Shown here in pieces: positions 25,531 to 64,000 of a stretch of DNA of 64,000 nt. This DNA comes from Siphonodentalium dalli. Taxonomy: Eukaryota > Mollusca > Scaphopoda > Gadilida > Siphonodentaliidae. The DNA lies in the NCBI GenBank assembly GCA_032622095.1, contig CP136064.1, positions 252,962,484 to 253,026,483 of the forward strand. Direction: 5' to 3'. Position 1 is the stretch's first letter, and each line of letters opens with the position of its first letter. The notes under the pieces are model-generated. The model ran no database searches. It was not told the origin of the DNA and worked only from the letters and a program-made list of their open reading frames with translations. The translations under genes and the position numbers were made by a program.

Positions 25531-25551
25531 GGCACAATGGACAATCTACTA

Positions 25552-29825: not shown

Positions 29826-30330
29826 TTTAAAAACTTTGAAAACACTTCTTCAAATATGGAAACGCTCATTAAAAACACTTCTTCAAATATCTCAGTTAAT
29901 TTTGGTCAATAGTAATCCTCGATTAATCCAAAGGTCAACCTTAAAAACACTTCTTCAAATATCTCAGTTAGTTATGGTTAATATTAATCCACGATTAATC
30001 CTAATGTCAACCTTAAAAATACTTCTTCATATATCTCAGTTAGTTATAGTCAATAGTAATCCTCGATTAATCCTAATGTCAACCTTAAAAACACTTCTTC
30101 ATATATCTCAGTTAGTTATAGTCAATGGTAATCATCGATTAATCCTAAGGTCAACCTTAAAAACACTTCTTCATATATCTCAGTTAGTTATAGTCAATAG
30201 TAATCATCGATTAATCCTAATGTCAACCTTAAAAACACTTCTTCATATATCTCAGTTAGTTATAGTCAATAGTAATCATCGTTCAAATATATCAGTTAGT
30301 TATAGTCAATAGTAATCCTCGATTAATCCT
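29826..30330 (+). repeat. Degenerate left edge of the satellite
   Basis: The first units are shortened and irregular (two partial units before 29,890; another truncated one at 30,280-30,300). They carry the rare CTTCAAATATC variant, also seen at 30,353 and 31,146 but not in the rest of the array. Decayed terminal units are expected where homogenising exchange is less effective. Confidence 0.8.
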
Positions 30331-30331
30331 A

Positions 30332-33300
30332 ATGTCAACCTTAAAAACACTTCTTCAAATATCTCAGTTAGTTATAGTCAATAGTAATCCTCGATTAATC
30401 CTAATGTCAACCTTAAAAACACTTCTTCATATATCTCAGTTAGTTATAGTCAATAGTAATCATCGATTAATCCTAATGTCAACCTTAAAAACACTTCTTC
30501 ATATATCTCAGTTAGTTATAGTCAATAGTAATCATCGATTAATCCTAATGTCAACCTTAAAAACACTTCTTCATATATCTCAGTTAGTTATGGTTAATAG
30601 TAATCCTCGATTAATCCTAAGGTCAACCTTAAAAACACTTCTTCATATATCTCAGTTAGTTATGGTTAATAGTAATCCTCGATTAATCCTAATGTCAACC
30701 TTAAAAACACTTCTTCATATATCTCAGTTAGTTATGGTTAATATTAATCCTCGATTAATCCTAATGTCAACCTTAAAAACACTTCTTCGTATATCTCAGT
30801 TAGTTATGGTTAATAGTAATCCTCGATTAATCCTAATGTCAACCTTAAAAACACTTCTTCATATATCTCAGTTAGTTATGGTTAATAGTAATCCTCGATT
30901 AATCCTAAGGTCAACCTTAAAAACACTTCTTCATATATCTCAGTTAGTTATGGTTAATATTAATCCTCGATTAATCCTAATGTCAACCTTAAAAACACTT
31001 CTTCATATATCTCAGTTAGTTATAGTCAATAGTAACCATCGATTAATCCTAATATCAACCTTAAAAACACTTCTTCATATATCTCAGTTAGTTATAGTCA
31101 ATAGTAACCATCGATTAATCCTAATGTCAACCTTAAAAACACTTCTTCAAATATCTCAGTTAGTTATGGTTAATAGTAATCCTCGATTAATCCTAAGGTC
31201 AACCTTAAAAACACTTCTTCATATATCTCAGTTAGTTATGGTTAATAGTAATCCTCGATTAATCCTAATGTCAACCTTAAAAACACTTCTTCATATATCT
31301 CAGTTAGTTATAGTCAATAGTAACCATCGATTAATCCTAATGTCAGCCTTAAAAACACTTCTTCATATATCTCAGTTAGTTATAGTCAATAGTAATCATC
31401 GATTAATCCTAATGTCAGCCTTTAAAACACTTCTTCATATATCTCAGTTAGTTATAGTCAATAGTAATCCTCGATTAATCCTAATGTCAGCCTTAAAAAC
31501 ACTTCTTCATATATCTCAGTTAGTTATAGTCAATAGTAATCCTCGATTAATCCTAATGTCAGCCTTAAAAACACTTCTTCATATATCTCAGTTAGTTATA
31601 GTCAATAGTAATCCTCGATTAATCCTAATGTCAGCCTTAAAAACACTTCTTCATATATCTCAGTTAGTTATAGTTAATATTAATCCTCGATTAATCCTAA
31701 TGTCAACCTTAAAAACACTTCTTCATATATCTCAGTTAGTTATAGTCAATAGTAATCCTCGATTAATCCTAATGTCAACCTTAAAAACACTTCTTCATGT
31801 ATCTCAGTTAGTTATAGTCAATAGTAATCCTCGATTAATCCTAATGTCAGCCTTTAAAACACTTCTTCATATATCTCAGTTAGTTATAGTTAATATTAAT
31901 CCTCGATTAATCCTAAGGTTAATCTTAAAAACACTTCTTCATATATCTCAGTTAGTTATAGTCAATAGTAATCCTCGATTAATCCTAATGTCAGCCTTAA
32001 AAACACTTCTTCATATATCTCAGTTAGTTATAGTCAATAGTAATCCTCGATTAATCCTAATGTCAACCTTAAAAACACTTCTTCATATATCTCAGTTAGT
32101 TATAGTCAATAGTAATCCTCGATTAATCCTAATGTCAGCCTTAAAAACACTTCTTCATATATCTCAGTTAGTTATAGTCAATAGTAATCCTCGATTAATC
32201 CTAATGTCAACCTTAAAAACACTTCTTCATATATCTCAGTTAGTTATAGTCAATAGTAACCATCGATTAATCCTAATGTCAACCTTTAAAACACTTCTTC
32301 ATGTATCTCAGTTAGTTATAGTCAATAGTAACCATCGATTAATCCTAATGTCAACCTTTAAAACACTTCTTCATGTATCTCAGTTAGTTATAGTCAATAG
32401 TAATCCTCGATTAATCCTAATGTCAACCTTAAAAACACTTCTTCATGTATCTCAGTTAGTTATAGTCAATAGTAACCATCGATTAATCCTAATGTCAACC
32501 TTTAAAACACTTCTTCATATATCTCAGTTAGTTATAGTTAATAGTAACCATCGATTAATCCTAATGTCAACCTTTAAAACACTTCTTCATATATCTCAGT
32601 TAGTTATAGTCAATAGTAACCATCGATTAATCCTAATGTCAGCCTTTAAAACACTTCTTCATATATCTCAGTTAGTTATAGTTAATAGTAATCATCGATT
32701 AATCATAATGTCAACCTTAAAAACACTTCTTCATATATCTCAGTTAGTTATAGTTAATAGTAACCATCGATTAATCCTAATGTCACCCTTAAAAACACTT
32801 CTTCATATATCTCAGTTAGTTATAGTCAATAGTAACCATCGATTAATCCTAATGTCAACCTTTAAAACACTTCTTCATATATCTCAGTTAGTTATAGTTA
32901 ATAGTAATCATCGATTAATCATAATGTCAACCTTTAAAACACTTCTTCATATATCTCAGTTAGTTATAGTCAATAGTAATCATCGATTAATCGTAATGTC
33001 AACCTTAAAAACACCTCTTCATATATCTCAGTTAGTTATAGTTAATAGTAATCCTCGATTAATCCTAATGTCAACCTTAAAAACACTTCTTCATATATCT
33101 CAGTTAGTTATAGTTAATAGTAATCCTCGATTAATCCTAATGTCAACCTTAAAAACACTTCTTCATATATCTCAGTTAGTTATAGTCAATAGAAATCCTC
33201 GATTAATCCTAATGTCAGCCTTTAAAACACTTCTTCATATATCTCAGTTAGTTATAGTCAATAGTAACCATCGATTAATCCTAATGTCAGCCTTTAAAAC

Positions 33301-35986
33301 ACTTCTTCATATATCTCAGTTAGTTATAGTTAATAGTAACCATCGATTAATCCTAATGTCACCCTTTAAAACACTTCTTCATATATCTCAGTTAGTTATA
33401 GTTAATAGTAACCATCGATTAATCCTAATGTCAGCCTTTAAAACACTTCTTCATGTATCTCAGTTAGTTATAGTCAATAGTAACCATCGATTAATCCTAA
33501 TGTCAGCCTTTAAAACACTTCTTCATGTATCTCAGTTAGTTATAGTCAATAGTAATCCTCGATTAATCCTAATGTCAGCCTTTAAAACACTTCTTCATAT
33601 ATCTCAGTTAGTTATAGTCAATAGTAATCCTCGATTAATCCTAATGTCAACCTTAAAAACACTTCTTCATATATCTCAGTTAGTTATAGTCAATAGTAAT
33701 CCTCTATTCATCCTAATGTCAACCTTAAAAACACTTCTTCATATATCTCAGTTAGTTATAGTCAATAGTAATCCTCGATTAATCCTAATGTCAGCCTTTA
33801 AAACACTTCTTCATATATCTCAGTTAGTTATAGTCAATAGTAATCCTCGATTAATCCTAATGTCAGCCTTTAAAACACTTCTTCATATATCTCAGTTAGT
33901 TATAGTTAATAGTAACCATCGATTAATCCTAATGTCAGCCTTTAAAACACTTCTTCATATATCTCAGTTAGTTATAGTTAATAGTAACCATCGATTAATC
34001 CTAATGTCAGCCTTTAAAACACTTCTTCATATATCTCAGTTAGTTATAGTTAATAGTAACCATCGATTAATCCTAATGTCAGCCTTAAAAACACTTCTTC
34101 ATATATCTCAGTTAGTTATAGTCAATAGTAACCATCGATTAATCCTAATGTCAGCCTTAAAAACACTTCTTCATATATCTCAGTTAGTTATAGTCAATAG
34201 TAACCATCGATTAATCCTAATGTCAGCCTTTAAAACACTTCTTCATATATCTCAGTTAGTTATAGTCAATAGTAACCATCGATTAATCCTAATGTCAACC
34301 TTAAAAACACTTCTTCATATATCTCAGTTAGTTATAGTCAATAGTAACCATCGATTAATCCTAATGTCAACCTTAAAAACACTTCTTCATGTATCTCAGT
34401 TAGTTATAGTCAATAGTAATCCTCGATTCATCCTAATGTCAGCCTTTAAAACACTTCTTCATATATCTCAGTTAGTTATAGTTAATAGTAACCATCGATT
34501 AATCCTAATGTCAGCCTTTAAAACACTTCTTCATATATCTCAGTTAGTTATAGTTAATAGTAACCATCGATTAATCCTAATGTCAACCTTAAAAACACTT
34601 CTTCATATATCTCAGTTAGTTATAGTCAATAGTAACCATCGATTAATCCTAATGTCAACCTTAAAAACACTTCTTCATGTATCTCAGTTAGTTATAGTCA
34701 ATAGTAATCCTCGATTCATCCTAATGTCAGCCTTTAAAACACTTCTTCATATATCTCAGTTAGTTATAGTTAATAGTAACCATCGATTAATCCTAATGTC
34801 AGCCTTTAAAACACTTCTTCATATATCTCAGTTAGTTATAGTTAATAGTAACCATCGATTAATCCTAATGTCAGCCTTAAAAACACTTCTTCATATATCT
34901 CAGTTAGTTATAGTCAATAGTAACCATCGATTAATCCTAATGTCAGCCTTAAAAACACTTCTTCATATATCTCAGTTAGTTATAGTCAATAGTAACCATC
35001 GATTAATCCTAATGTCAGCCTTTAAAACACTTCTTCATATATCTCAGTTAGTTATAGTCAATAGTAACCATCGATTAATCCTAATGTCAACCTTAAAAAC
35101 ACTTCTTCATATATCTCAGTTAGTTATAGTCAATAGTAACCATCGATTAATCCTAATGTCAACCTTAAAAACACTTCTTCATGTATCTCAGTTAGTTATA
35201 GTCAATAGTAATCCTCGATTCATCCTAATGTCAGCCTTTAAAACACTTCTTCATATATCTCAGTTAGTTATAGTTAATAGTAACCATCGATTAATCCTAA
35301 TGTCAGCCTTTAAAACACTTCTTCATATATCTCAGTTAGTTATAGTTAATAGTAACCATCGATTAATCCTAATGTCAGCCTTTAAAACACTTCTTCATAT
35401 ATCTCAGTTAGTTATAGTTAATAGTAATCCTCGATTCATCCTAATGTCAGCCTTTAAAACACTTCTTCATATATCTCAGTTAGTTATAGTCAATAGTAAT
35501 CATCGATTAATCCAAATGTCAGCCTTAAAAACACTTCTTCATATATCTCAGTTAGTTATAGTTAATAGTAACCATCGATTCATCCTAATGTCAGCCTTTA
35601 AAACACTTCTTCATATATCTCAGTTAGTTATAGTTAATAGTAATCATCGATTAATCCTAATGTCAGCCTTAAAAACACTTCTTCATATATCTCAGTTAGT
35701 TATAGTCAATAGTAATCATCGATTAATCCAAATGTCAGCCTTAAAAACACTTCTTCATATATCTCAGTTAGTTATAGTCAATAGTAACCATCGATTCATC
35801 CTAATGTCAGCCTTAAAAACACTTCTTCATATATCTCAGTTAGTTATAGTCAATAGTAATTCTCTATTAATCCTAATGTCAGCCTTTAAAACACTTCTTC
35901 ATATATCTCAGTTAGTTATAGTTAATAGTAACCCTCGATTCATCCTAATGTCACCTTTAAAACACTTCTTCATATATCTCAGTTAG
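30332..35986 (+). other. Long open frame made by in-phase 72-bp units (1,884 codons); probably not a gene
   Basis: Because the unit is 24 codons and one frame has no stop, this stretch reads as about 78 repeats of a 24-residue motif, LKTLLHISQLVIVNSNPRLI plus a short linker (ILMST). The other five frames all have stops in each unit. Most frequent variants change the amino acid (T/A/P, L/F, P/H, L/F, I/V); only GTC/GTT and AAT/AAC are silent. There is no signal peptide, no cap or non-repeat domain and no recognisable promoter. The frame ends by a one-base deletion at about 35,952. The 24-residue period recalls leucine-rich repeats, but the asparagine position does not fit. I regard it as a by-product of unit length. 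Confidence 0.75.
34080..35390 (+). repeat. Segmentally duplicated block inside the satellite
   Basis: The diagnostic CATGTATCTC unit followed by a TTCATCC unit recurs at 34,388, 34,676 and 35,180, that is 288 bp (4 units) and 504 bp (7 units) apart, with the same order of neighbouring variants. This shows recent unequal exchange of multi-unit segments. Confidence 0.75.
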
Positions 35987-37599
35987 TTATAGTTAATAGT
36001 AACCATCGATTCATCCTAATGTCAGCCTTAAAAACACTTCTTCATATATCTCAGTTAGTTATAGTTAAATAGTAATCATCGATTCATCCTAATGTCAGCC
36101 TTTAAAACACTTCTTCATATATCTCAGTTAGTTATGGTTAATATTAATCATCGATTAATCCTAATGTCAGCCTTTAAAACACTTCTTCATATATCTCAGT
36201 TAGTTATAGTTAATAGTAATCCTCGATTAATCCTAATGTCAGCCTTAAAAACACTTCTTCATATATCTCAGTTAGTTATAGTTAATAGTAACCATCGATT
36301 AATCCTAATGTCAGCCTTAAAAACACTTCTTCATATATCTCAGTTAGTTATAGTTAATAGTAACCATCGATTAATCCTAATGTCAGCCTTTAAAACACTT
36401 CTTCATATATCTCAGTTAGTTATAGTTAATAGTAATCCTCGATTAATCCTAATGTCAACCTTAAAAACACTTCTTCATATATCGCAGTTAGTTATGGTTA
36501 ATAGTAACCATCGATTAATCCTAATGTCAGCCTTTAAAACACTTCTTCATATATCTCAGTTAGTTATAGTCAATAGTAACCATCGATTAATCCTAATGTC
36601 ACCCTTTAAAACACTTCTTCATATATCTCAGTTAGTTATAGTCAATATTAATCCTCGATTCATCCTAATGTCAGCCTTTAAAACACTTCTTCATATATCT
36701 CAGTTAGTTATAGTTAATATTAACCATCGATTAATCCTAATGTCAGCCTTTAAAACACTTCTTCATGTATCTCAGTTAGTTATAGTTAATATTAATCCTC
36801 GATTCATCCTAATGTCAGCCTTTAAAACACTTCTTCATATATCTCAGTTAGTTATAGTTAATAGTAACCATCGATTAATCCTAATGTCAGCCTTAAAAAC
36901 ACTTCTTCATATATCTCAGTTAGTTATAGTTAATAGTAACCATCGATTAATCCTAATGTCAGCCTTTAAAACACTTCTTCATATATCTCAGTTAGTTATA
37001 GTTAATAGTAACCATCGATTAATCCTAATGTCAGCCTTTAAAACACTTCTTCATATATCTCAGTTAGTTATAGTTAATAGTAACCCTCGATTCATCCTAA
37101 TGTCACCCTTAAAAACACTTCTTCATATATCTCAGTTAGTTATAGTGAATAGTAACCATCGATTCATCCTAATGTCAACCTTTAAAACACTTCTTCATAT
37201 ATCTCAGTTAGTTATAGTCAATATTAATCATCGATTCATCCTAATGTCAGCCTTTAAAACACTTCTTCATATATCTCAGTTAGTTATAGTCAATAGTAAC
37301 CATCGATTCATCCTAATGTCAACCTTTAAAACACTTCTTCATATATCTCAGTTAGTTATAGTCAATAGAAACCATCGATTCATCCTAATGTCAGCCTTTA
37401 AAACACTTCTTCATATATCTCAGTTAGTTATAGTCAATAGTAACCATCGATTCATCCTAATGTCACCCTTAAAAACACTTCTTCATATATCTCAGTTAGT
37501 TATAGTCAATAGTAATCCTCGATTCATCCTAATGTCAGCCTTTAAAACACTTCTTCATATATCTCAGTTAGTTATAGTCAATAGTAATCCTCGATTAAT

Positions 37600-38400
37600 C
37601 CTAATGTCAACCTTAAAAACACTTCTTCATATATCTCAGTTAGTTATAGTCAATAGTAACCATCGATTCATCCTAATGTCACCCTTAAAAACACTTCTTC
37701 ATATATCTCAGTTAGTTATAGTTAATAGTAATCATCGATTCATCCTAATGTCAGCCTTTAAAACACTTCTACATATATCTCAGTTAGTTATAGTCAATAG
37801 TAATCCTCGATTCATCCTAATGTCAGCCTTTAAAACACTTCTTCATATATCTCAGTTAGTTATAGTCAATAGTAATCCTCGATTAATCCTAATGTCAACC
37901 TTAAAAACACTTCTTCATATATCTCAGTTAGTTATAGTCAATAGTAACCATCGATTCATCCTAATGTCACCCTTAAAAACACTTCTTCATATATCTCAGT
38001 TAGTTATAGTCAATAGTAATCATCGATTCATCCTAATGTCAGCCCTTAAAACACTTCTTCATATATCTCAGTTAGTTATAGTTAAATAGTAACCATCGAT
38101 TAATCCTAATGTCACCCTTAAAAACACTTCTTCATATATCTCAGTTAGTTATAGTCAATAGTAATCCTCGATTAATCCTAATGTCAACCTTAAAAACACT
38201 TCTTCATATATCTCAGTTAGTTATAGTCAATAGTAACCATCGATTCATCCTAATGTCACCCTTAAAAACACTTCTTCATATATCTCAGTTAGTTATAGTC
38301 AATAGTAATCATCGATTCATCCTAATGTCAGCCCTTAAAACACTTCTTCATATATCTCAGTTAGTTATAGTTAAATAGTAACCATCGATTAATCCTAATG
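37600..38400 (+). repeat. 289-bp higher-order repeat (three 72-bp units plus one 73-bp unit)
   Basis: The order of CAACC, CACCC and CAGCC units ending in a GTTAAATAG unit repeats with a period of 289 bp: the open frames starting at 38,109 and 38,398 begin at equivalent positions and end at the same TAG. The extra base shifts frame once per higher-order unit. Confidence 0.75.
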
Positions 38401-40749
38401 TCACCCTTAAAAACACTTCTTCATATATCTCAGTTAGTTATAGTTAATAGTAATCATCGATTCATCCTAATGTCAGCCTTTAAAACACTTCTACATATAT
38501 CTCAGTTAGTTATAGTCAATAGTAACCATCGATTCATCCTAATGTCAGCCTTTAAAACACTTCTTCATATATCTCAGTTAGTTATAGTCAATAGTAATCA
38601 TCGATTAATCCTAAGGTCAGCCTTTAAAACACTTCTTCATATATCTCAGTTAGTTATAGTCAAAAGTAACCATCGATTCATCCTAATGTCACCCTTTAAA
38701 ACACTTCTTCATATATCTCAGTTAGTTATAGTCAATAGTAACCATCGATTCATCCTAATGTCAGCCTTTAAAACACTTCTTCATATATCTCAGTTAGTTA
38801 TAGTTAATAGTAACCATCGATTAATCCTAATGTCAGCCTTTAAAACACTTCTTCATATATCTCAGTTAGTTATAGTTAAATAGTAACCATCGATTAATCC
38901 TAATGTCAGCCTTTAAAACACTTCTTCATATATCTCAGTTAGTTATAGTCAATAGTAACCATCGATTCATCCTAATGTCAGCCTTTAAAACACTTCTTCA
39001 TATATCTCAGTTAGTTATAGTCAATAGTAACCATCGATTCATCCTAATGTCAGCCTTTAAAACACTTCTTCATATATCTCAGTTATTTATAGTTAATAGT
39101 AACCATCGATTAATCCTAATGTCAGCCTTTAAAACACTTCTTCATATATCTCAGTTAGTTATAGTTAATAGAAACCATCGATTCATCCTAATGTCACCCT
39201 TTAAAACACTTCTTCATATATCTCAGTTAGTTATAGTTAATAGAAACCATCGATTCATCCTAATGTCACCCTTTAAAACACTTCTTCATATATCTCAGTT
39301 AGTTATAGTTTAATAGAAACCATCGATTCATCCTAATGTCAGCCTTTAAAACACTTCTTCATATATCTCAGTTAGTTATAGTTAAATAGTAACCATCGAT
39401 TCATCCTAATGTCAGCCTTTAAAACACTTCTTCATATATCTCAGTTAGTTATAGTTAAATAGTAACCATCGATTCATCCTAATGTCACCCTTTAAAACAC
39501 TTCTTCATATATCTCAGTTAGTTATAGTTAATAGAAACCATCGATTCATCCTAATGTCACCCTTTAAAACACTTCTTCATATATCTCAGTTAGTTATAGT
39601 TAAATAGTAACCATCGATTCATCCTAATGTCAGCCTTTAAACACTTCTTCATATATCTCAGTTAGTTATAGTTAAATAGTAACCATCGATTAATCCTAAT
39701 GTCAGCCTTAAAAACACTTCTTCATATATCTCAGTTAGTTATAGTTAAATAGAAACCATCGATTCATCCTAATGTCAGCCTTTAAAACACTTCTTCATAT
39801 ATCTCAGTTAGTTATAGTCAATAGTAACCATCGATTCATCCTAATGTCAGCATTAAAAACACTTCTTCATATATCTCAGTTAGTTATAGTCAATAGTAAC
39901 CATCGATTAATCCTAATGTCAGCCTTTAAAACACTTCTTCATATATCTCAGTTAGTTATAGTCAATAGTAACCATCGATTCATCCTAATGTCAGCATTAA
40001 AAACACTTCTTCATATATCTCAGTTAGTTATAGTTAATAGTAATCCTCGATTCATCCTAATGTCAGCCTTTAAAACACTTCTTCATATATCTCAGTTAGT
40101 TATAGTTAAATAGAAACCATCGATTCATCCTAATGTCAGCCTTTAAAACACTTCTTCATATATCTCAGTTAGTTATGATTAAATAGTAATCATCGATTCA
40201 TCCTAATGTCACCCTTTAAAACACTTCTTCATATATCTCAGTTAGTTATAGTTAATATTAATCATCGATTCATCCTAATGTCAGCCTTTAAAACACTTCT
40301 TCATATATCTCAGTTAGTTATAGTTAAATAGAAACCATCGATTCATCCTAATGTCAGCCTTAAAAACACTTCTTCATATATCTCAGTTAGTTATAGTTAA
40401 TAGAAACCATCGATTCATCCTAATGTCAGCCTTTAAAACACTTCTTCATATATCTCAGTTAGTTATAGTTAATAGTAACCATCGATTAATCCTAATGTCA
40501 GCCTTTAAAACACTTCTTCATATATCTCAGTTAGTTATAGTTAATAGTAACCATCGATTCATCCTAATGTCAGCCTTTAAAACACTTCTTCATATATCTC
40601 AGTTAGTTATAGTCAATATTAACCATCGATTCATCCTAATGTCAGCCTTTAAAACACTTCTTCATATATCTCAGTTAGTTATAGTTAATATTAACCATCG
40701 ATTCATCCTAATGTCAACCTTAAAAACACTTCTTCATATATCTCAGTTA

Positions 40750-48130: not shown

Positions 48131-48289
48131 ATCCTAATGTCAGCCTTTAAAACACTTCTTCATATATCTCAGTTAGTTATAGTTAATAGTAACCATCGAT
48201 TAATCCTAATGTCACCCTTTAAAACACTTCTTCATATATCTCAGTTACTTATAGTTAATAGTAACCATCGATTAATCCTAATGTCACCC

Positions 48290-49800: not shown

Positions 49801-52800
49801 CCTAATGTCAGCCTTTAAAACACTTCTTCATATATCTCAGTTAGTTATAGTTAAATAGTAACCATCGATTAATCCTAATGTCAGCCTTTAAAACACTTCT
49901 TCATATATCTCAGTTAGTTATAGTTAATAGTAACCATCGATTCATCCTAATGTCAACCTTTAAAACACTTCTTCATATATCTCAGTTAGTTATAGTTAAT
50001 AGTAACCATCGATTCATCCTAATGTCAGCCTTTAAAACACTTCTTCATATATCTCAGTTAGTTATAGTTAATAGTAAGTCTCTATTAATCCTAATGTCAG
50101 CCTTTAAAACACTTCTTCATATATCTCAGTTAGTTATAGTTAATAGTAAGTCTCTATTCATCCTAATGTCAGCCTTTAAAACACTTCTTCATATATCTCA
50201 GTTAGTTATAGTTAATAGTAAGTCTCTATTCATCCTAATGTCAGCCTTTAAAACACTTCTTTATATATCTCAGTAAGTTATAGTTAATAGTAAGTCTCTA
50301 TTAATCCTAATGTCAGCCTTTAAAACACTTCTTCATATATCTCAGTTAGTTATAGTTAATAGTAAGTCTCTATTCATCCTAATGTCAGCCTTTAAAACAC
50401 TTCTTCATATATCTCAGTTAGTTATAGTTAAATAGTAACCATCGATTAATCCTAATGTCAGCCTTTAAAACACTTCTTTATATATCTCAGTTAGTTATAG
50501 TTTAATAGTAACCATCGATTCATCCTAATGTCAGCCTTTAAAACACTTCTTTATATATCTCAGTTAGTTATAGTTAATAGAAACCATCGATTCATCCTAA
50601 TGTCAGCCTTTAAAACACTTCTTTATATATCTCAGTAAGTTATAGTTAATAGTAAGTCTCTATTCATCCTAATGTCAGCCTTTAAAACACTTCTTTATAT
50701 ATCTCAGTAAGTTATAGTTAATAGTAAGTCTCTATTCATCCTAATGTCAGCCTTTAAAACACTTCTTTATATATCTCAGTAAGTTATAGTTAAATAGTAA
50801 GTCTCTATTCATCCTAATGTCAGCCTTTAAAACACTTCTTTATATATCTCAGTAAGTTATAGTTAAATAGTAAGTCTCTATTAATCCTAATGTCAGCCTT
50901 TAAAACACTTCTTCATATATCTCAGTTAGTTATAGTTAATAGTAAGTCTCTATTCATCCTAATGTCAGCCTTTAAAACACTTCTTCATATATCTCAGTTA
51001 GTTATAGTTAATAGTAAGTCTCTATTCATCCTAATGTCAGCCTTTAAAACACTTCTTCATATATCTCAGTTAGTTATAGTTAAATAGTAACCATCGATTA
51101 ATCCTAATGTCAGCCTTTAAAACACTTCTTTATATATCTCAGTTAGTTATAGTTTAATAGTAACCATCGATTCATCCTAATGTCAGCCTTTAAAACACTT
51201 CTTTATATATCTCAGTTAGTTATAGTTAATAGAAACCATCGATTCATCCTAATGTCAGCCTTTAAAACACTTCTTTATATATCTCAGTTAGTTATAGTTA
51301 ATAGTAACCATCGATTCATCCTAATGTCAGCCTTTAAAACACTTCTTCATATATCTCAGTAAGTTATAGTTAATAGTAAGTCTCTATTCATCCTAATGTC
51401 AGCCTTTAAAACACTTCTTTATATATCTCAGTTAGTTATAGTTAATAGTAAGTCTCTATTAATCCTAATGTCAGCCTTTAAAACACTTCTTCATATATCT
51501 CAGTTAGTTATAGTTAATAGTAAGTCTCTATTCATCCTAATGTCAGCCTTTAAAACACTTCTTCATATATCTCAGTTAGTTATAGTTAAATAGTAACCAT
51601 CGATTAATCCTAATGTCAGCCTTTAAAACACTTCTTTATATATCTCAGTTAGTTATAGTTTAATAGTAACCATCGATTCATCCTAATGTCAGCCTTTAAA
51701 ACACTTCTTTATATATCTCAGTTAGTTATAGTTAATAGAAACCATCGATTCATCCTAATGTCAGCCTTTAAAACACTTCTTTATATATCTCAGTTACTTA
51801 TAGTTAAATAGTAACCATCGATTAATCCTAATGTCAGCCTTTAAAACACTTCTTCATATATCTCAGTAAGTTATAGTTAATAGTAAGTCTCTATTCATCC
51901 TAATGTCAGCCTTTAAAACACTTCTTCATATATCTCAGTTAGTTATAGTTAAATAGTAACCATCGATTAATCCTAATGTCAGCCTTTAAAACACTTCTTT
52001 ATATATCTCAGTTACTTATAGTTAAATAGTAACCATCGATTAATCCTAATGTCAGCCTTTAAAACACTTCTTCATATATCTCAGTAAGTTATAGTTAATA
52101 GTAAGTCTCTATTCATCCTAATGTCAGCCTTTAAAACACTTCTTCATATATCTCAGTTAGTTATAGTTAATAGTAAGTCTCTATTCATCCTAATGTCACC
52201 TTAAAAACACTTCTTCATATATCTCAGTAAGTTATAGTTAATAGTAAGTCTCTATTCATCCTAATGTCACCTTAAAAACACTTCTTTATATATCTCAGTA
52301 AGTTATAGTTAATAGTAAGTCTCTATTAATCCTAATGTCAGCCTTTAAAACACTTCTTCATATATCTCAGTTAGTTATAGTCAATAGTAAGTCTCTATTA
52401 ATCCTAATGTCAGCCTTTAAAACACTTCTTTATATATCTCAGTTAGTTATAGTTAATAGTAAGTCTCTATTAATCCTAATGTCAACCTTTAAAACACTTC
52501 TTCATATATCTCAGTTAGTTATAGTTAATAGTAAGTCTCTATTCATCCTAATGTCACCTTAAAAACACTTCTTCATATATCTCAGTAAGTTATAGTTAAT
52601 AGTAAGTCTCTATTCATCCTAATGTCACCTTAAAAACACTTCTTTATATATCTCAGTAAGTTATAGTTAATAGTAAGTCTCTATTAATCCTAATGTCAGC
52701 CTTTAAAACACTTCTTCATATATCTCAGTTAGTTATAGTCAATAGTAAGTCTCTATTAATCCTAATGTCAGCCTTTAAAACACTTCTTTATATATCTCAG

Positions 52801-54568
52801 TTAGTTATAGTTAATAGTAAGTCTCTATTAATCCTAATGTCAACCTTTAAAACACTTCTTTATATATCTCAGTTAGTTATAGTTAATAGTAAGTCTCTAT
52901 TAATCCTAATGTCAACCTTTAAAACACTTCTTCATATATCTCAGTTAGTTATAGTTAAATAGTAAGTCTCTATTAATCCTAATGTCAGCCTTTAAAACAC
53001 TTCTTCATATATCACAGTAAGTTATAGTTAATAGTAAGTCTCTATTAATCCTAATGTCAGCCTTTAAAACACTTCTTTATATATCTCAGTTAGTTATAGT
53101 TAATAGTAAGTCTCTATTAATCCTAATGTCACCCTTTAAAACACTTCTTTATATATCTCAGTAAGTTATAGTTAATAGTAAGTCTCTATTAATCCTAATG
53201 TCACCCTTTAAAACACTTCTTTATATATCTCAGTTAGTTATAGTTAATAGTAAGTCTCTATTCATCCTAATGTCAGCCTTTAAAACACTTCTTTATATAT
53301 CTCAGTAAGTTATAGTTAATAGTAAGTCTCTATTAATCCTAATGTCAGCCTTAAAAACACTTCTTCATATATCTCAGTAAGTTATAGTTAATAGTAAGTC
53401 TCTATTCATCCTAATGTCAGCCTTTAAAACACTTCTTTATATATCTCAGTAAGTTATAGTTAATAGTAAGTCTCTATTCATCCTAATGTCAGCCTTAAAA
53501 ACACTTCTTCATATATCTCAGTTAATTATAGTTAATAGTAAGTCTCTATTAATCCTAATGTCAGCCTTTAAAACACTTCTTTATATATCTCAGTAAGTTA
53601 TAGTTAATAGTAAGTCTCTATTCATCCTAATGTCAGCCTTAAAAACACTTCTTCATATATCTCAGTTAATTATAGTTAATAGTAAGTCTCTATTAATCCT
53701 AATGTCAGCCTTAAAAACACTTCTTCATATATCTCAGTTAGTTATAGTTAATAGTAAGTCTCTATTAATCCTAATGTCAGCCTTAAAAACACTTCTTCAT
53801 ATATCTCAGTAAGTTATAGTTAATAGTAACCATCGATTAATCCTAATGTCAGCCTTTAAAACACTTCTTCATATATCTCAGTTAGTTATAGTTAAATAGT
53901 AAGTCTCTATTAATCCTAATGTCAGCCTTTAAAACACTTCTTTATATATCTCAGTAAGTTATAGTTAATAGTAAGTCTCTATTAATCCTAATGTCAACCT
54001 TTAAAACACTTCTTTATATATCTCAGTAAGTTATAGTTAATAGTAAGTCTCTATTAATCCTAATGTCAGCCTTTAAAACACTTCTTCATATATCTCAGTT
54101 AGTTATAGTTAAATAGTAAGTCTCTATTAATCCTAATGTCAGCCTTTAAAACACTTCTTCATATATCTCAGTTAGTTATAGTTAAATAGTAAGTCTCTAT
54201 TAATCCTAATGTCAGCCTTTAAAACACTTCTTCATATATCTCAGTTAGTTATAGTTAATAGTAACCATCGATTAATCCTAATGTCAGCCTTTAAAACACT
54301 TCTTCATATATCTCAGTTAGTTATAGTTAATAGTAACCATCGATTCATCCTAATGTCAGCCTTTAAAACACTTCTTTATATATCTCAGTAAGTTATAGTT
54401 AATAGTAAGTCTCTATTAATCCTAATGTCAACCTTTAAAACACTTCTTTATATATCTCAGTAAGTTATAGTTAATAGTAAGTCTCTATTAATCCTAATGT
54501 CAACCTTTAAAACACTTCTTTATATATCTCAGTAAGTTATAGTTAATAGTAAGTCTCTATTAATCCTA

Positions 54569-55270
54569 ATGTCAGCCTTTAAAACACTTCTTCATATATC
54601 TCAGTTAGTTATAGTTAATAGTAACCATCGATTAATCCTAATGTCAGCCTTTAAAACACTTCTTCATATATCTCAGTTAGTTATAGTTAATAGTAACCAT
54701 CGATTAATCCTAATGTCAGCCTTTAAAACACTTCTTCATATATCTCAGTTAGTTATAGTTAATAGTAACCATCGATTCATCCTAATGTCAGCCTTTAAAA
54801 CACTTCTTCATATATCTCAGTTAGTTATGGTTAATAGTAACCATCGATTCATCCTAATGTCAGCCTTTAAAACACTTCTTCATATATCTCAGTTAGTTAT
54901 AGTTAATAGTAACCATCGATTCATCCTAATGTCAGCCTTTAAAACACTTCTTCATATATCTCAGTTAGTTATGGTTAATAGTAACCATCGATTCATCCTA
55001 ATGTCAGCCTTTAAAACACTTCTTCATATATCTCAGTTAGTTATAGTCAATAGTAACCATCGATTCATCCTAATGTCAGCCTTTAAAACACTTCTTCATA
55101 TATCTCAGTTAGTTATAGTTAATAGTAACCATCGATTCATCCTAATGTCAGCCTTTAAAACACTTCTTCATATATCTCAGTTAGTTATAGTCAATAGTAA
55201 CCATCGATTCATCCTAATGTCAGCCTTTAAAACACTTCTTCATATATCTCAGTTAGTTATAGTTAAATAG
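54569..55270 (+). repeat. Near-homogeneous 72-bp block
   Basis: About ten successive 72-bp units, almost all CAGCCTTTAAAA with CCATCGATTCATCC, differ by only single substitutions (GTTATGGTTAAT at 54,828 and 54,972). It interrupts the variant mosaic around it and gives a 233-codon open frame. It looks recently homogenised. Confidence 0.7.
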
Positions 55271-55410
55271 TAACCATCGATTCATCCTAATGTCAGCCTT
55301 AAAAACACTTCTTCATGTATCTCAGTTAGTTATAGTTAATAGTAACCATCGATTCATCCTAATGTCAGCCTTAAAAACACTTCTTCATATATCTCAGTTA
55401 GTTATAGTTA

Positions 55411-58100
55411 AATAGTAAGTCTCTATTAATCCTAATGTCAGCCTTTAAAACACTTCTTCATATATCTCAGTTAGTTATAGTTAATATTAATCCTCGATTC
55501 ATCCTAATGTCAGCCTTTAAAACACTTCTTCATATATCTCAGTTATTTATAGTTAAATAGTAAGTCTCTATTAATCCTAATGTCAGCCTTTAAAACACTT
55601 CTTCATATATCTCAGTTAGTTATAGTTAATATTAATCCTCGATTCATCCTAATGTCAGCCTTTAAAACACTTCTTTATATATCTCAGTTAGTTATAGTTA
55701 AATAGTAAGTCTCTATTAATCCTAATGTCAGCCTTTAAAACACTTCTTCATATATCTCAGTTAGTTATAGTTAATATTAATCCTCGATTCATCCTAATGT
55801 CAGCCTTTAAAACACTTCTTTATATATCTCAGTTAGTTATAGTTAAATAGTAAGTCTCTATTAATCCTAATGTCAGCCTTTAAAACACTTCTTCATATAT
55901 CTCAGTTAGTTATAGTTAATAGTAAGTCTCTATTCATCCTAATGTCAGCCTTTAAAACACTTCTTCATATATCTCAGTTAGTTATAGTTAATAGTAAGTC
56001 TCTATTCATCCTAATGTCAGCCTTTAAAACACTTCTTCATATATCTCAGTTATTTATAGTTAAATAGTAAGTCTCTATTAATCCTAATGTCAGCCTTTAA
56101 AACACTTCTTCATATATCTCAGTTAGTTATAGTTAAATAGTAAGTCTCTATTCATCCTAATGTCAGCCTTTAAAACACTTCTTCATATATCACAGTTAGT
56201 TATAGTTAATAGTAAGTCTCTATTCATCCTAATGTCAGCCTTTAAAACACTTCTTCATATATCTCAGTTAGTTATAGTTAATATTAATCCTCGATTCATC
56301 CTAATGTCAGCCTTTAAAACACTTCTTTATATATCTCAGTTATTTATAGTTAAATAGTAAGTCTCTATTAATCCTAATGTCAGCCTTTAAAACACTTCTT
56401 CATATATCTCAGTTAGTTATAGTTAATAGTAAGTCTCTATTCATCCTAATGTCAGCCTTTAAAACACTTCTTCATATATCTCAGTTAGTTATAGTTAATA
56501 TTAATCCTCGATTCATCCTAATGTCAGCCTTTAAAACACTTCTTTATATATCTCAGTTAGTTATAGTTAAATAGTAAGTCTCTATTAATCCTAATGTCAG
56601 CCTTTAAAACACTTCTTCATATATCTCAGTTAGTTATAGTTAATAGTAAGTCTCTATTAATCCTAATGTCAGCCTTTAAAACACTTCTTCATATATCTCA
56701 GTTAGTTATAGTTAATATTAATCCTCGATTCATCCTAATGTCAGCCTTTAAAACACTTCTTTATATATCTCAGTTATTTATAGTTAAATAGTAAGTCTCT
56801 ATTAATCCTAATGTCAGCCTTTAAAACACTTCTTCATATATCTCAGTTAGTTATAGTTAATATTAATCCTCGATTCATCCTAATGTCAGCCTTTAAAACA
56901 CTTCTTTATATATCTCAGTTAGTTATAGTTAAATAGTAAGTCTCTATTAATCCTAATGTCAGCCTTTAAAACACTTCTTCATATATCTCAGTTAGTTATA
57001 GTTAATATTAATCCTCGATTCATCCTAATGTCAGCCTTTAAAACACTTCTTTATATATCTCAGTTAGTTATAGTTAAATAGTAAGTCTCTATTAATCCTA
57101 ATGTCAGCCTTTAAAACACTTCTTCATATATCTCAGTTAGTTATAGTTAATAGTAAGTCTCTATTCATCCTAATGTCAGCCTTTAAAACACTTCTTCATA
57201 TATCTCAGTTATTTATAGTTAAATAGTAAGTCTCTATTAATCCTAATGTCAGCCTTTAAAACACTTCTTCATATATCTCAGTTAGTTATAGTTAATATTA
57301 ATCCTCGATTCATCCTAATGTCAGCCTTTAAAACACTTCTTTATATATCTCAGTTAGTTATAGTTAAATAGTAAGTCTCTATTAATCCTAATATCAGCCT
57401 TTAAAACACTTCTTTATATATCTCAGTAAGTTATAGTTAATAGTAAGTCTCTATTCATCCTAATGTCAGCCTTTAAAACACTTCTTCATATATCTCAGTT
57501 ATTTATAGTTAAATAGTAAGTCTCTATTAATCCTAATGTCAGCCTTTAAAACACTTCTTCATATATCTCAGTTAGTTATAGTTAATATTAATCCTCGATT
57601 CATCCTAATGTCAGCCTTTAAAACACTTCTTCATATATCTCAGTTATTTATAGTTAAATAGTAAGTCTCTATTAATCCTAATGTCAGCCTTTAAAACACT
57701 TCTTCATATATCTCAGTTAGTTATAGTTAATATTAATCCTCGATTCATCCTAATGTCAGCCTTTAAAACACTTCTTCATATATCTCAGTTATTTATAGTT
57801 AAATAGTAAGTCTCTATTAATCCTAATGTCAGCCTTTAAAACACTTCTTCATATATCTCAGTTAGTTATAGTTAATATTAATCCTCGATTCATCCTAATG
57901 TCAGCCTTTAAAACACTTCTTCATATATCTCAGTTATTTATAGTTAAATAGTAAGTCTCTATTAATCCTAATGTCAGCCTTTAAAACACTTCTTCATATA
58001 TCTCAGTTAGTTATAGTTAATATTAATCCTCGATTCATCCTAATGTCAGCCTTTAAAACACTTCTTTATATATCTCAGTTAGTTATAGTTAAATAGTAAG
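55411..58100 (+). repeat. 145-bp higher-order repeat (73 + 72), with 217-bp trimers
   Basis: The AATAGTAAGTCTC unit (73-bp form) recurs at 55,411, 55,556, 55,701, 55,846, then 56,063, 56,136, 56,353, 56,570, 56,787, and again every 145 bp from 56,787 through 58,092 (for example 56,932, 57,077, 57,222, 57,367, 57,512, 57,657, 57,802, 57,947). Spacings are 145 or 217, with one 73. The companion unit carries AATATTAATCCTCGATTCAT. This is the most regular part of the array. Confidence 0.9.
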
Positions 58101-61100
58101 TCTCTATTAATCCTAATGTCAGCCTTTAAAACACTTCTTCATATATCTCAGTTAGTTATAGTTAATAGTAAGTCTCTATTCATCCTAATGTCAGCCTTTA
58201 AAACACTTCTTCATATATCTCAGTTAGTTATAGTTAAATAGTAAGTCTCTATTAATCCTAATGTCAGCCTTTAAAACACTTCTTCATATATCTCAGTTAG
58301 TTATAGTTAAATAGTAAGTCTCTATTAATCCTAATGTCAGCCTTTAAAACACTTCTTCATATATCTCAGTTAGTTATAGTTAAATAGTAAGTCTCTATTA
58401 ATCCTAATGTCAGCCTTTAAAACACTTCTTCATATATCTCAGTTAGTTATAGTTAATAGTAAGTCTCTATTCATCCTAATGTCAGCCTTTAAAACACTTC
58501 TTCATATATCTCAGTTAGTTATAGTTAAATAGTAAGTCTCTATTAATCCTAATGTCAGCCTTTAAAACACTTCTTCATATATCTCAGTTAGTTATAGTTA
58601 ATATTAATCCTCGATTCATCCTAATGTCAGCCTTTAAAACACTTCTTCATATATCTCAGTTATTTATAGTTAAATAGTAAGTCTCTATTAATCCTAATGT
58701 CAGCCTTTAAAACACTTCTTCATATATCTCAGTTAGTTATAGTTAATATTAATCCTCGATTCATCCTAATGTCAGCCTTTAAAACACTTCTTCATATATC
58801 TCAGTTAGTTATAGTTAATAGTAACCATCGATTAATCCTAATGTCAGCCTTTAAAACACTTCTTCATATATCTCAGTTAGTTATAGTTAAATAGTAAGTC
58901 TCTATTAATCCTAATGTCAGCCTTTAAAACACTTCTTCATATATCTCAGTTAGTTATAGTTAATAGTAAGTCTCTATTAATCCTAATGTCAACCTTTAAA
59001 ACACTTCTTCATATATCTCAGTAAGTTATAGTTAATAGTAAGTCTCTATTAATCCTAATGTCACCCTTTAAAACACTTCTTCATATATCTCAGTTAGTTA
59101 TAGTTAATAGTAAGTCTCTATTCATCCTAATGTCAGCCTTTAAAACACTTCTTCATATATCTCAGTTAATTATAGTCAATAGTAAGTCTCTATTAATCCT
59201 AATGTCACCCTTTAAAACACTTCTTCATATATCTCAGTTAATTATAGTCAATAGTAACCATCGATTAATCCTAATGTCAGCCTTTAAAACACTTCTTCAT
59301 ATATCTCAGTTAATTATAGTCAATAGTAAGTCTCTATTAATCCTAATGTCAGCCTTTAAAACACTTCTTCATATATCTCAGTTAGTTATAGTTAATATTA
59401 ATCCTCGATTCATCCTAATGTCAGCCTTTAAAACACTTCTTCATATATCTCAGTTAGTTATAGTTAAATAGTAAGTCTCTATTAATCCTAATGTCAGCCT
59501 TTAAAACACTTCTTCATATATCTCAGTTAGTTATAGTTAATATTAATCCTCGATTCATCCTAATGTCAGCCTTTAAAACACTTCTTCATATATCTCAGTT
59601 AGTTATAGTTAAATAGTAAGTCTCTATTAATCCTAATGTCAGCCTTTAAAACACTTCTTCATATATCTCAGTTATTTATAGTTAAATAGTAAGTCTCTAT
59701 TAATCCTAATGTCAGCCTTTAAAACACTTCTTCATATATCTCAGTTAGTTATAGTTAATATTAATCCTCGATTCATCCTAATGTCAGCCTTTAAAACACT
59801 TCTTCATATATCTCAGTTAGTTATAGTTAATAGTAACCATCGATTAATCCTAATGTCAGCCTTTAAAACACTTCTTCATATATCTCAGTTAGTTATAGTT
59901 AAATAGTAAGTCTCTATTAATCCTAATGTCAGCCTTTAAAACACTTCTTCATATATCTCAGTTAGTTATAGTTAATAGTAAGTCTCTATTCATCCTAATG
60001 TCAGCCTTTAAAACACTTCTTCATATATCTCAGTTAGTTATAGTTAAATAGTAAGTCTCTATTAATCCTAATGTCAGCCTTTAAAACACTTCTTCATATA
60101 TCTCAGTTAGTTATAGTTAAATAGTAAGTCTCTATTAATCCTAATGTCAGCCTTTAAAACACTTCTTCATATATCTCAGTTAGTTATAGTTAAATAGTAA
60201 GTCTCTATTAATCCTAATGTCAGCCTTTAAAACACTTCTTCATATATCTCAGTTAGTTATAGTTAATAGTAAGTCTCTATTCATCCTAATGTCAGCCTTT
60301 AAAACACTTCTTTATATATCTCAGTTAGTTATAGTTAATAGTAAGTCTCTATTCATCCTAATGTCAGCCTTTAAAACACTTCTTCATATATCTCAGTTAG
60401 TTATAGTTAAATAGTAAGTCTCTATTAATCCTAATGTCAGCCTTTAAAACACTTCTTCATATATCTCAGTTAGTTATAGTTAAATAGTAAGTCTCTATTA
60501 ATCCTAATGTCAGCCTTTAAAACACTTCTTCATATATCTCAGTTAGTTATAGTTAAATAGTAAGTCTCTATTAATCCTAATGTCAGCCTTTAAAACACTT
60601 CTTCATATATCTCAGTTAGTTATAGTTAATATTAATCCTCGATTCATCCTAATGTCACCCTTTAAAACACTTCTTCATATATCTCAGTTAGTTATAGTTA
60701 ATAGTAACCATCGATTCATCCTAATGTCACCCTTAAAAACACTTCTTTATATATCTCAGTTAATTATAGTTAATAGTAATCATCGATTCATCCTAATGTC
60801 AGCCTTTAAAACACTTCTTCATATATCTCAGTAAGTTATAGTTAATAGTAAGTCTCGATTAATCCTAATGTCAGCCTTTAAAACACTTCTTCATATATCT
60901 CAGTTAGTTATAGTTAAATAGTAATCATCGATTCATCCTAATGTCAGCCTTTAAAACACTTCTTCATATATCTCAGTTAGTTATAGTTAATAGAAACCAT
61001 CGATTCATCCTAATGTCAGCCTTTAAAACACTTCTTCATATATCTCAGTTAGTTATAGTCAATAGTAACCATCGATTAATCCTAATGTCAGCCTTTAAAA

Positions 61101-64000
61101 CACTTCTTCATATATCTCAGTTAGTTATAGTCAATAGTAACCATCGATTCATCCTAATGTCAGCCTTTAAAACACTTCTTCATATATCTCAGTTAGTTAT
61201 AGTTAAATAGTAACCATCGATTCATCCTAATGTCACCCTTTAAAACACTTCTTCATATATCTCAGTTAGTTATAGTTAATAGTAACCATCGATTAATCCT
61301 AATGTCAGCCTTTAAAACACTTCTTCATATATCTCAGTTAGTTATAGTTAAATAGTAACCATCGATTCATCCTAATGTCACCCTTTAAAACACTTCTTCA
61401 TATATCTCAGTTAGTTATAGTTAATAGAAACCATCGATTCATCCTAATGTCAGCCTTTAAAACACTTCTTCATATATCTCAGTTAGTTATAGTCAATAGT
61501 AACCATCGATTAATCCTAATGTCAGCCTTTAAAACACTTCTTCATATATCTCAGTTAGTTATAGTTAATAGAAATCATCGATTCATCCTAATGTCAGCCT
61601 TTAAAACACTTCTTCATATATCTCAGTTAGTTATAGTTAATATTAACCATCGATTAATCCTAATGTCAGCCTTTAAAACACTTCTTTATATATCTCAGTT
61701 AGTTATAGTTAATAGTAACCATCGATTCATCCTAATGTCACCCTTTAAAACACTTCTTCATATATCTCAGTTAGTTATAGTTAATAGTAATCCTCGATTC
61801 ATCCTAATGTCACCCTTTAAAACACTTCTTTATATATCTCAGTTAGTTATAGTCAATAGTAACCATCGATTCATCCTAATGTCACCCTTTAAAACACTTC
61901 TTTATATATCTCAGTTAGTTATAGTCAATAGTAACCATCGATTCATCCTAATGTCACCCTTTAAAACACTTCTTCATATATCTCAGTTAGTTATAGTTAA
62001 TAGTAATCCTCGATTCATCCTAATGTCACCCTTTAAAACACTTCTTTATATATCTCAGTTAGTTATAGTCAATAGTAACCATCGATTCATCCTAATGTCA
62101 GCCTTTAAAACACTTCTTCATATATCTCAGTTAGTTATAGTTAATAGTAATCCTCGATTCATCCTAATGTCACCCTTTAAAACACTTCTTCATATATCTC
62201 AGTAAGTTATAGTTAATAGTAAGTCTCTATTAATCCTAATGTCAGCCTTTAAAACACTTCTTTATATATCTCAGTTAGTTATAGTTAATAGTAAGTCTCT
62301 ATTAATCCTAATGTCAGCCTTTAAAACACTTCTTTATATATCTCAGTTAGTTATAGTTAATAGTAACCATCGATTCATCCTAATGTCAGCCTTTAAAACA
62401 CTTCTTCATATATCTCAGTTAGTTATAGTTAATAGAAACCATCGATTCATCCTAATGTCAGCCTTTAAAACACTTCTTCATATATCTCAGTTAGTTATAG
62501 TTAATAGAAACCATCGATTCATCCTAATGTCAGCCTTTAAAACACTTCTTCATATATCTCAGTTAGTTATAGTTAATAGTAAGTCTCTATTAATCCTAAT
62601 GTCAGCCTTTAAAACACTTCTTCATATATCTCAGTTAGTTATAGTTAATAGTAAGTCTCTATTAATCCTAATGTCAGCCTTTAAAACACTTCTTCATATA
62701 TCTCAGTTAGTTATAGTTAATAGTAAGTCTCTATTAATCCTAATGTCACCCTTTAAAACACTTCTTCATATATCTCAGTTAGTTATAGTTAATAGTAACC
62801 ATCGATTCATCCTAATGTCACCCTTTAAAACACTTCTTCATATATCTCAGTAAGTTATAGTCAATAGTAATCCTCGATTCATCCTAATGTCAACCTTTAA
62901 AACACTTCTTCATATATCTCAGTTAGTTATAGTTAATAGTAAGTCTCTATTAATCCTAATGTCAGCCTTTAAAACACTTCTTTATATATCTCAGTAAGTT
63001 ATAGTTAATAGTAAGTCTCTATTAATCCTAATGTCAGCCTTTAAAACACTTCTTCATATATCTCAGTTAGTTATAGTTAATAGAAACCATCGATTAATCC
63101 TAATGTCAACCTTAAAAACACTTCTTCATATATCTCAGTTAGTTATAGTTAATAGAAACCATCGATTCATCCTAATGTCAGCCTTTAAAACACTTCTTCA
63201 TATATCTCAGTAAGTTATAGTCAATAGTAATCCTCGATTCATCCTAATGTCAACCTTTAAAACACTTCTTCATATATCTCAGTTAGTTATAGTTAATAGT
63301 AACCATCGATTCATCCTAATGTCAGCCTTTAAAACACTTCTTCATATATCTCAGTTAGTTATAGTTAAATAGTAACCATCGATTCATCCTAATGTCAGCC
63401 TTTAAAACACTTCTTCATATATCTCAGTTAGTTATAGTTAATAGTAACCATCGATTCATCCTAATGTCAGCCTTTAAAACACTTCTTCATATATCTCAGT
63501 TAGTTATAGTTAATATTAATCCTCGATTAATCCTAATGTCAACCTTAAAAACACTTCTTTATATATCTCAGTTAGTTATAGTTAATAGTAACCATCGATT
63601 AATCCTAATGTCAGCCTTTAAAACACTTCTTTATATATCTCAGTTAGTTATAGTTAAATAGTAACCATCGATTCATCCTAATGTCACCCTTTAAAACACT
63701 TCTTCATATATCTCAGTTAGTTATAGTCAATAGAAACCATCGATTCATCCTAATGTCAGCCTTTAAAACACTTCTTCATATATCTCAGTAAGTTATAGTT
63801 AATAGTAAGTCTCTATTAATCCTAATGTCAGCCTTTAAAACACTTCTTCATATATCTCAGTTAGTTATAGTTAATAGTAACCATCGATTCATCCTAATGT
63901 CAGCCTTTAAAACACTTCTTCATATATCTCAGTTAGTTATAGTTAAATAGTAACCATCGATTCATCCTAATGTCAGCCTTAAAAACACTTCTTCATATAT

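What the first reader, a model, noticed from the sequence alone, without database searches (positions are those of the whole stretch)
29826..64000. A >34-kb uninterrupted 72-bp satellite with domain structure and several higher-order repeat forms
The array has no transposon insertions although the flanking 30 kb is full of them. It is partitioned into domains by shared variants, with higher-order periods of 145, 217, 288 and 289 bp in different places. This is the organisation expected of an active centromeric or heterochromatic satellite. I do not recognise the unit as a described satellite.
Basis: partly seen in the sequence, partly recalled or inferred. Interest (0 to 1): 0.75.

Follow-up and report, generated by a model that had tools for sequence, protein, structure and literature searches.

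The report
Transposon unit expanded into 59-kb satellite
A 72-base piece of an old dispersed transposable element has been multiplied about 815 times at one chromosomal site, giving a young satellite-like array caught close to its birth rather than a repeat shared by the centromeres of the genome.

Summary
The array is real: 470 complete 71-73 bp monomers in the window, one strand, no inserted element. With the adjoining genome it is 58.9 kb, C4:252,992,341-253,051,275, with 813 complete monomers. The centromere reading gains no support. Of 668 exact copies of a unit 25-mer in the 2.23-Gb, nine-contig genome, 661 lie in this array; the other 7 are single truncated copies on C1. Both edges are remnants of a dispersed non-autonomous element found on all nine contigs; the 27 other copies examined outside a C9 cluster hold one to a few units, none an array. 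The parental unit lies between two 16-bp direct repeats, a ready substrate for tandem duplication. Both edges keep parent-like alleles and share a deletion junction absent between them: a short founder array probably grew from the inside. Within the 72 bp, variants assort almost freely (76 of 91 site pairs show four combinations); simple simulations favour short-tract conversion over unequal exchange alone. Higher-order repeats are short and local. New member of a known kind: a transposon-internal repeat expanded into a satellite.

The parts
29801..29857 (+). Left remnant of the carrier element: its 12-base 5' end CACCTGATTCGC at 29801-29812, then internally deleted element sequence and a degenerate partial unit
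   Evidence: Exact 12-base match to the 5' ends of dispersed copies L034, L037 and L044, one mismatch in L039. CCTGATTCGC has 7 hits in the 340,978 bases held, which are 5 separate places: four element copies and here. The flank alignment as a whole scores no better than shuffles (24 against a shuffle maximum of 25), so the case rests on the exact terminal motif and its place.
29858..64000 (+). 72-bp satellite array; it continues outside the window to C4:253,051,275 (58.9 kb in all, 813 complete monomers)
29858..31250 (+). Left edge zone with parent-like alleles (GTCAAT, AATCCTCG) and AAGGTCA, shared with the right edge
30242..30353 (+). Truncated monomer (44 + 68 bp); its deletion junction recurs only at the right edge (2 copies, 58 kb away)
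35754..39800 (+). Local 4-mer higher-order repeat (288/289 bp)
   Evidence: Lag-4 z -3.1 to -4.4 against shuffled monomer order
45856..63196 (+). Most derived domain: GTCTCT subtype (20-85% per bin) and, in most bins, 73-bp (extra A) monomers
54519..58900 (+). Local 2-mer higher-order repeat (145 = 72 + 73 bp)
   Evidence: Lag-2 z -3.3 to -4.3 with lag-1 z -0.2 to +3.3 in the bins starting 54519-57413; one search gives lag-2 z -2.5 to -3.4 with lag-1 z +1.0 to +4.0

Best explanation
This is a single-locus satellite array that grew out of one copy of an old, dispersed, roughly 500-bp non-autonomous element. In the element a unit of about 70 bp lies between two copies of a 16-bp direct repeat (TTAAAAACACTTCTTC). 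Inferred step 1: out-of-register exchange or slippage between those repeats duplicated the unit. Inferred step 2: unequal exchange or break-induced replication enlarged the array from within, so that the two ends of the founder array now lie 59 kb apart and still carry parent-like alleles and a shared deletion junction. Inferred step 3: frequent short-tract gene conversion keeps re-sorting a small set of variants among monomers, which keeps the array uniform; turnover would also clear insertions. Shown: single locus in the assembly, element sequence at both ends, single or few units in the other copies examined, parent-like edges, very low linkage within monomers. Not shown: any function. The sequence gives no sign of a conserved protein-binding box or of coding, so I take it to be a selfish or neutral by-product of recombination.
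For: 661 of 668 genome-wide exact 25-mers lie in this array; the other 7 are single truncated copies. The right flank query, starting 8 bases past the array, matches 40 scored places including itself, of 4,466 first-look candidates, on all nine contigs; the 39 others are 75-89% identical. I fetched 14 of those 39, chosen among the longest matches; 14 of 14 carry one to a few partial units and no array, partly by design because the query itself contains degenerate unit pieces. Thirteen loci from the unit search, outside the C9 cluster, show the same. The direct repeats, some decayed, flank the unit in the 13-copy alignment (one of them from the C9 cluster). The element's 5' terminal 12-mer lies left of the array and its 3' end TATAAGAATGGCCTG right of it. 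The shared deletion junction occurs 3 times: 30280, 88460, 88572, none between. AAGGTCA: 5 left edge, 1 inside, 5 right edge. Parent-like allele score 0.80 / 0.59 / 0.83 for first 20 / middle 200 / last 20 monomers. Association between sites is 0.036 up to 10 bp and 0.031 beyond, outside the 35-40 block (0.476), with four combinations in 76 of 91 pairs. In simulations 0 of 24 unequal-exchange-only runs reached the observed 160 distinct monomers (maximum 145) or a longest run as short as 8 (minimum 9), while the 24 runs with added short conversion bracket both.
Against: The rotation test for the edge-to-centre gradient is not significant by itself (7.5% of 199 rotations as extreme); the first gradient used alleles that I chose by eye. 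The simulations are a simple neutral equilibrium model of 470 units with numbers of variants matched only roughly; no single setting matched all observed measures, and linkage alone did not separate the models (one exchange-only setting reached 0.040 against 0.042 observed). In earlier unmatched runs exchange-only settings with 159-215 variants did reach 160 or more distinct monomers, and one a longest run of 7. Only the 9 contigs held were searched; unplaced or collapsed satellite would be missed. The 25-mer search is exact, so arrays of a diverged form elsewhere could be missed; the looser 15-mer search did not complete. The DNA search did not list even the home array because very common words are skipped. 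The left flank is a short remnant. The direction unit-in-element to array is inferred; an element that picked up a unit from an array would leave a similar picture, though the wide spread and divergence of the dispersed copies speak against it.
Confidence: 0.82

Rival explanations
1. Centromeric satellite of chromosome C4 only: the array seeds a kinetochore on this chromosome, with the layered structure expected of centromeric expansions.
For: 58.9 kb uninterrupted, AT-rich, local higher-order repeats and a derived centre with parent-like flanks, which resembles the layered expansions described for alpha satellite (PMC12321929, passages). It lies about 84.5% along a 299-Mb contig.
Against: Only 1 of 9 contigs has it. 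No CENP-B box in the window. No excess of invariant columns (27 of 72 against 31.1 expected from 60 random variants). The centromere position of C4 is unknown.
Confidence: 0.07
2. One visible piece of a genome-wide heterochromatic satellite whose other arrays are missing from the assembly.
For: Assemblies often omit or collapse satellite; only nine chromosome-scale contigs are held.
Against: The array is closed, with element-derived sequence beyond each edge, and no further tandem copy of the exact 25-mer is placed anywhere else in the nine contigs; the seven C1 copies are single.
Confidence: 0.07
3. Assembly artefact: a short true array inflated or wrongly joined.
For: No reads could be checked.
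Against: 273 distinct monomer sequences among 813, parent-like edges and local higher-order domains do not look like artificial duplication; the longest exactly repeated block is 11 monomers.
Confidence: 0.04

Closest known systems
Helentron-associated interspersed elements with central satellite-like repeats (Cg_HINE of Crassostrea gigas; PMC7492417, abstract and passages)
   Same: A dispersed non-autonomous element with end modules and an internal repeat related to a satellite.
   Different: Here the dispersed copies carry one or a few units of about 70 bp rather than arrays of 100-500 bp units, and one locus has about 815; the longest array in their set has 29.3 monomers. Helentron ends, target sites or a helicase were not shown here.
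Tetris / DINE-TR1 of Drosophila and terMITEs (named in PMC12628747, passages and references; details recalled)
   Same: Internal tandem repeats of a transposon expanding into satellite arrays; short direct repeats proposed as the duplication substrate.
   Different: Different element and sequence; as I recall, there many loci carry arrays, here one.
CgiSat01 of C. gigas (PMC8268682, passages)
   Same: Element-linked satellite with a long stand-alone array (232 monomers, about 40 kb, with an assembly gap).
   Different: 164-166 bp monomers, mostly element-associated extractions in that genome.
PcH-sat of the limpet Patella caerulea (PMC11121367, abstract and passages)
   Same: Satellite sharing a segment with a dispersed element (Nin-SINE).
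   Different: 118 bp of SINE-like sequence; by FISH pericentromeric on five chromosome pairs.
Palorus subdepressus 72-bp pericentromeric satellite (PMC8122249, passage)
   Same: Monomer length.
   Different: It makes up 20% of that genome, lies on all 20 chromosomes and is built of T2A5T octamers and 22-bp inverted repeats; not so here.
Layered expansions of alpha satellite (PMC12321929, passage)
   Same: Derived centre, ancestral-like flanks, local higher-order repeats.
   Different: Single 59-kb locus, no evidence of centromere function.

Membership tests
Satellite array derived from a transposon-internal repeat | Unit present inside dispersed copies of a mobile element | tested here: met
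   13-copy alignment; 14 of 14 flank-matched copies carry unit sequence (partly by design, the query contains degenerate units)
Satellite array derived from a transposon-internal repeat | Array flanked on both sides by that element | tested here: met
   Right flank strong (itself plus 39 other scored places); left flank a deleted remnant with the exact 12-base end, its wider alignment no better than shuffles
Centromeric satellite of the genome | Present on most or all chromosomes | tested here: not met
   661 of 668 exact 25-mers in one array on C4; 7 singles on C1
Centromeric satellite of the genome | Bound by CENP-A | not testable with these tools
   No chromatin data
Centromeric satellite of the genome | CENP-B box (not required in all lineages) | tested here: not met
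   0 matches with up to 3 mismatches in the window; consensus recalled
Helentron / HINE | Subterminal inverted repeats, 3' palindrome, no target-site duplication, insertion at a fixed dinucleotide | tested here: inconclusive
   Palindromic TTAGATAT...ATATCTAA near both ends seen by eye output; ends and target sites not mapped systematically
Helentron / HINE | Autonomous Rep-helicase partner | not tested
   Not searched
Higher-order-repeat satellite | Multi-monomer unit repeated with high identity over long stretches | tested here: not met
   Only local periodicities; lags up to 12 (window) and 8 (whole array); longest exact block 11 monomers
Coding repeat | Frame kept open through the array | tested here: not met
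   A 1906-aa open frame exists because 72 = 3 x 24, but 121 monomers of 73 bp break the frame; no Pfam match for a 457-aa piece

The most novel reading that the evidence does not exclude
Inside-out, layered growth with short-tract conversion, a pattern known from centromeric satellite, also builds a satellite from a single transposon-internal unit at a locus with no sign of centromere function; so layering and higher-order repeats are products of recombination alone and not marks of a centromere. The locus would be a satellite seen before it has spread.
Probability: 0.4. Interest if true: 0.55.

Novelty: new member of a known kind. Interest (0 to 1): 0.38.

Why it matters
Most satellites are seen after they have spread to many chromosomes, when origin and growth can no longer be read. 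Here the parental unit, the 16-bp repeats that could have started the duplication, what look like the two ends of the founder array and about 815 descendants are all in one assembly, so models of satellite birth (unequal exchange, break-induced replication, gene conversion) can be fitted to one closed case. It also warns that length, uniformity, domains and local higher-order repeats in a sequence window do not by themselves indicate a centromere.

Tried and rejected
Searches that led nowhere: unit 25-mer in viral contigs and genome contigs, 0 matches each; Rfam 0 and tRNAs 0 in the window; Pfam 0 families for ten open frames, nine of them in the left flank; six unit k-mers in the paper library, 0 papers; 'satellite DNA' + '72 bp' + mollusc + 'tandem repeat', 0 papers. 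Of the seven papers listed I opened one. The organism was not identified.

Rejected: coding repeat (frame broken by 73-bp monomers). Conserved protein-binding box: invariant columns are not in excess (27 of 72 against 31.1 expected). Long-range higher-order repeat satellite. First simulations did not match the observed number of variants and were replaced; several exchange-only runs with 159-215 variants reached 160-267 distinct monomers, and one a longest run of 7. The by-eye ancestral allele set was replaced by the alignment-based set, which left out sites 18, 57 and 62 (fewer than 8 aligned copies or no 70% majority); the rotation test there gave 7.5%.

Not answered: a looser 15-mer search for diverged arrays elsewhere (CTCAGTTAGTTATAG).
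Full report
What is there. TRF finds period 72 over 30282-64000 (467.1 copies, 95% matches) with a short neighbour at 29869-30281. Cyclic alignment from 29900 gives 474 rows, of which 470 are complete monomers of 71-73 bp on one strand. I extended the array with adjoining genome. The window is C4:252,962,484-253,026,483 of a 2,226,750,531-base genome in nine contigs; C4 has 299,223,332 bases. The array starts at window position 29858, ends at C4:253,051,275 and spans 58.9 kb. The alignment of 58,912 bp gives 819 rows: 679 of 72 bp, 121 of 73, 13 of 71 and 6 partial or odd rows at the edges and at the truncated-monomer places; in complete monomers the largest insertion is one base. The array therefore holds no inserted element, whereas a TTAACCC-type MITE lies about 0.6 kb beyond its right edge (L030 5391-5781) and three copies of that family lie in the left 30 kb.

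Is it a genome-wide satellite? The exact 25-mer AAAACACTTCTTCATATATCTCAGT occurs 663 times forward and 5 times reverse in the genome. The array holds 661. The remaining 7 are on C1 at 196.6-198.7 Mb; they are single truncated copies inside stretches that are about 96-100% alike in their main alignments. So this assembly has one array. The limits are that the search is exact, that only nine contigs are held, and that a looser 15-mer request did not complete.

Where it comes from. A 301-bp piece of the array finds 38 scored places of 169 candidates, at 72-88% identity, each covering one to about two units; the array itself is not listed, because the tool skips very common words. In the 13 loci fetched from these outside the C9 cluster (L034-L041, L044-L048), the main match is one to about two units long. 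A cluster at C9:133.234-133.304 Mb is a macrosatellite-like series with spacings of about 3.06, 3.83 and 6.25 kb among others, the copies read holding one unit at 79% identity to the array consensus. In 13 aligned dispersed copies, one of them from that cluster, the unit lies between two copies of TTAAAAACACTTCTTC, some of them decayed, with a spacing near 70 bp, two bases shorter than the array unit. The sequence just right of the array matches 40 scored places, itself included, of 4,466 candidates on all nine contigs; the 39 others are 75-89% identical. I fetched 14 of the 39, all long matches, and all 14 carry unit sequence, one to a few partial copies and no array; the query holds degenerate unit pieces itself, so their presence is partly built in, but the lack of arrays is not. 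The element's 3' end is found at L030 5780-5817, after a MITE and another insert shared with L041 at 81%. Its 5' end, CACCTGATTCGC, is found exactly at window 29801, followed by an internally deleted remnant. That left alignment scores no better than shuffles (24 against a shuffle maximum of 25), so it rests on the exact terminal motif, whose 10-base core occurs in the held sequence at four element copies and here.

How it grew. With ancestral alleles called from the dispersed copies at 12 sites, the parent-like score is 0.80 in the first 20 monomers, 0.59 in the middle 200 and 0.83 in the last 20; the rank correlation with distance to the nearest edge is -0.52, but 7.5% of 199 rotations do as well, so this test alone is not decisive. 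Stronger is shared detail: a deletion junction occurs at 30280, 88460 and 88572 and nowhere between, and AAGGTCA occurs 5 times at the left edge, once inside and 5 times at the right edge. The simplest reading is a short founder array whose interior was expanded.

How it is kept uniform. 45 of 72 columns vary at all, most of them rarely, and invariant columns are not in excess (27 against 31.1 expected for 60 random variants), so there is no evidence of a conserved box. Association between sites within a monomer is low: 0.476 inside the 35-40 block, 0.036 for other pairs up to 10 bp and 0.031 beyond (rotation null mean 0.013, 95th percentile 0.036, window part). Four combinations occur in 76 of 91 site pairs (69 of 91 in the window part). 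In simulations matched roughly for the number of variants, 24 runs with unequal exchange alone never reached the observed 160 distinct monomers (maximum 145) or a longest repeated run as short as 8 (minimum 9), while the 24 runs with short conversion tracts bracket both. No one setting matched every measure, and linkage alone did not separate the models. The model is simple, so this favours conversion but does not prove it. Break-induced replication (PMC12321929, passages) is an alternative way of growth that I did not model.

Function. None is shown. There is no CENP-B box in the window; no Rfam or tRNA match and no Pfam match for the frames tried; the long open frame is broken by 73-bp monomers. 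I take the array to be a selfish or neutral product of recombination. A centromere confined to C4 cannot be excluded.

Known or new. Expansion of transposon-internal repeats into satellites is reviewed in PMC12628747 (passages) and described for Helentron-type elements in oyster (PMC7492417, abstract and passages; PMC8268682, passages). Six unit k-mers have no match in the held papers, and the one 72-bp satellite that the phrase search turned up, in a beetle, is different (PMC8122249, passage). I file this as a new member of a known kind, with the unusual merit that parent, founder ends and descendants seem all visible at one locus.

Noticed in passing
window 3569-3970, 6582-6983, 24334-24757; L030 5391-5781: MITE family with TTAACCCTTTACCCAACA-type ends and two internal palindromes (CCAATGCATTCTCTTATATATGCGAG...); a further copy is inserted in the carrier element right of the array. 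Pieces also occur in L006 and L007.
   Followed up: partly
G000 C9:133,234,323-133,304,531 (L028, L042, L043): Macrosatellite-like cluster with spacings of about 3.06, 3.83 and 6.25 kb among others; the copies read contain one unit each, 79% identical to the array consensus. A second, quite different route from this element to tandem DNA.
   Followed up: partly
G000 C1:196.60-196.88 and 198.60-198.67 Mb (L049-L055): Seven stretches about 96-100% alike in their main alignments, five in one orientation and two in the other, each with one truncated unit: a recent segmental duplication or larger repeat.
   Followed up: partly
window 17892-18108 and 20080-20212: Near-perfect palindromic elements beginning TACAGTAATG; the first has 107-nt arms that are 100% complementary.
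   Followed up: no
window 4160-5406: Nested inverted repeat about 1.2 kb long with arms 98-99% complementary around a 453-nt centre.
   Followed up: no
window about 25548-25860: Looks like a tRNA-derived SINE on the minus strand (GGTTCAAATC box, ATCA-type tail); mollusc-like by recall only, not tested.
   Followed up: no
window 21408-21933, 3263-3487, 28709-28879: Small tandem repeats of 175 bp x 3.0, 55 bp x 4.1 and 83 bp x 2.1.
   Followed up: no
array unit positions 39-40: The single CpG of the consensus unit is hardly decayed to TpG or CpA: C39 in 471 of 471 and G40A in 2 of 471 window monomers, G40A in 3 of 813 over the whole array; either little methylation or great youth. G40T, linked to the GTCTCT type, is common.
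   Followed up: no
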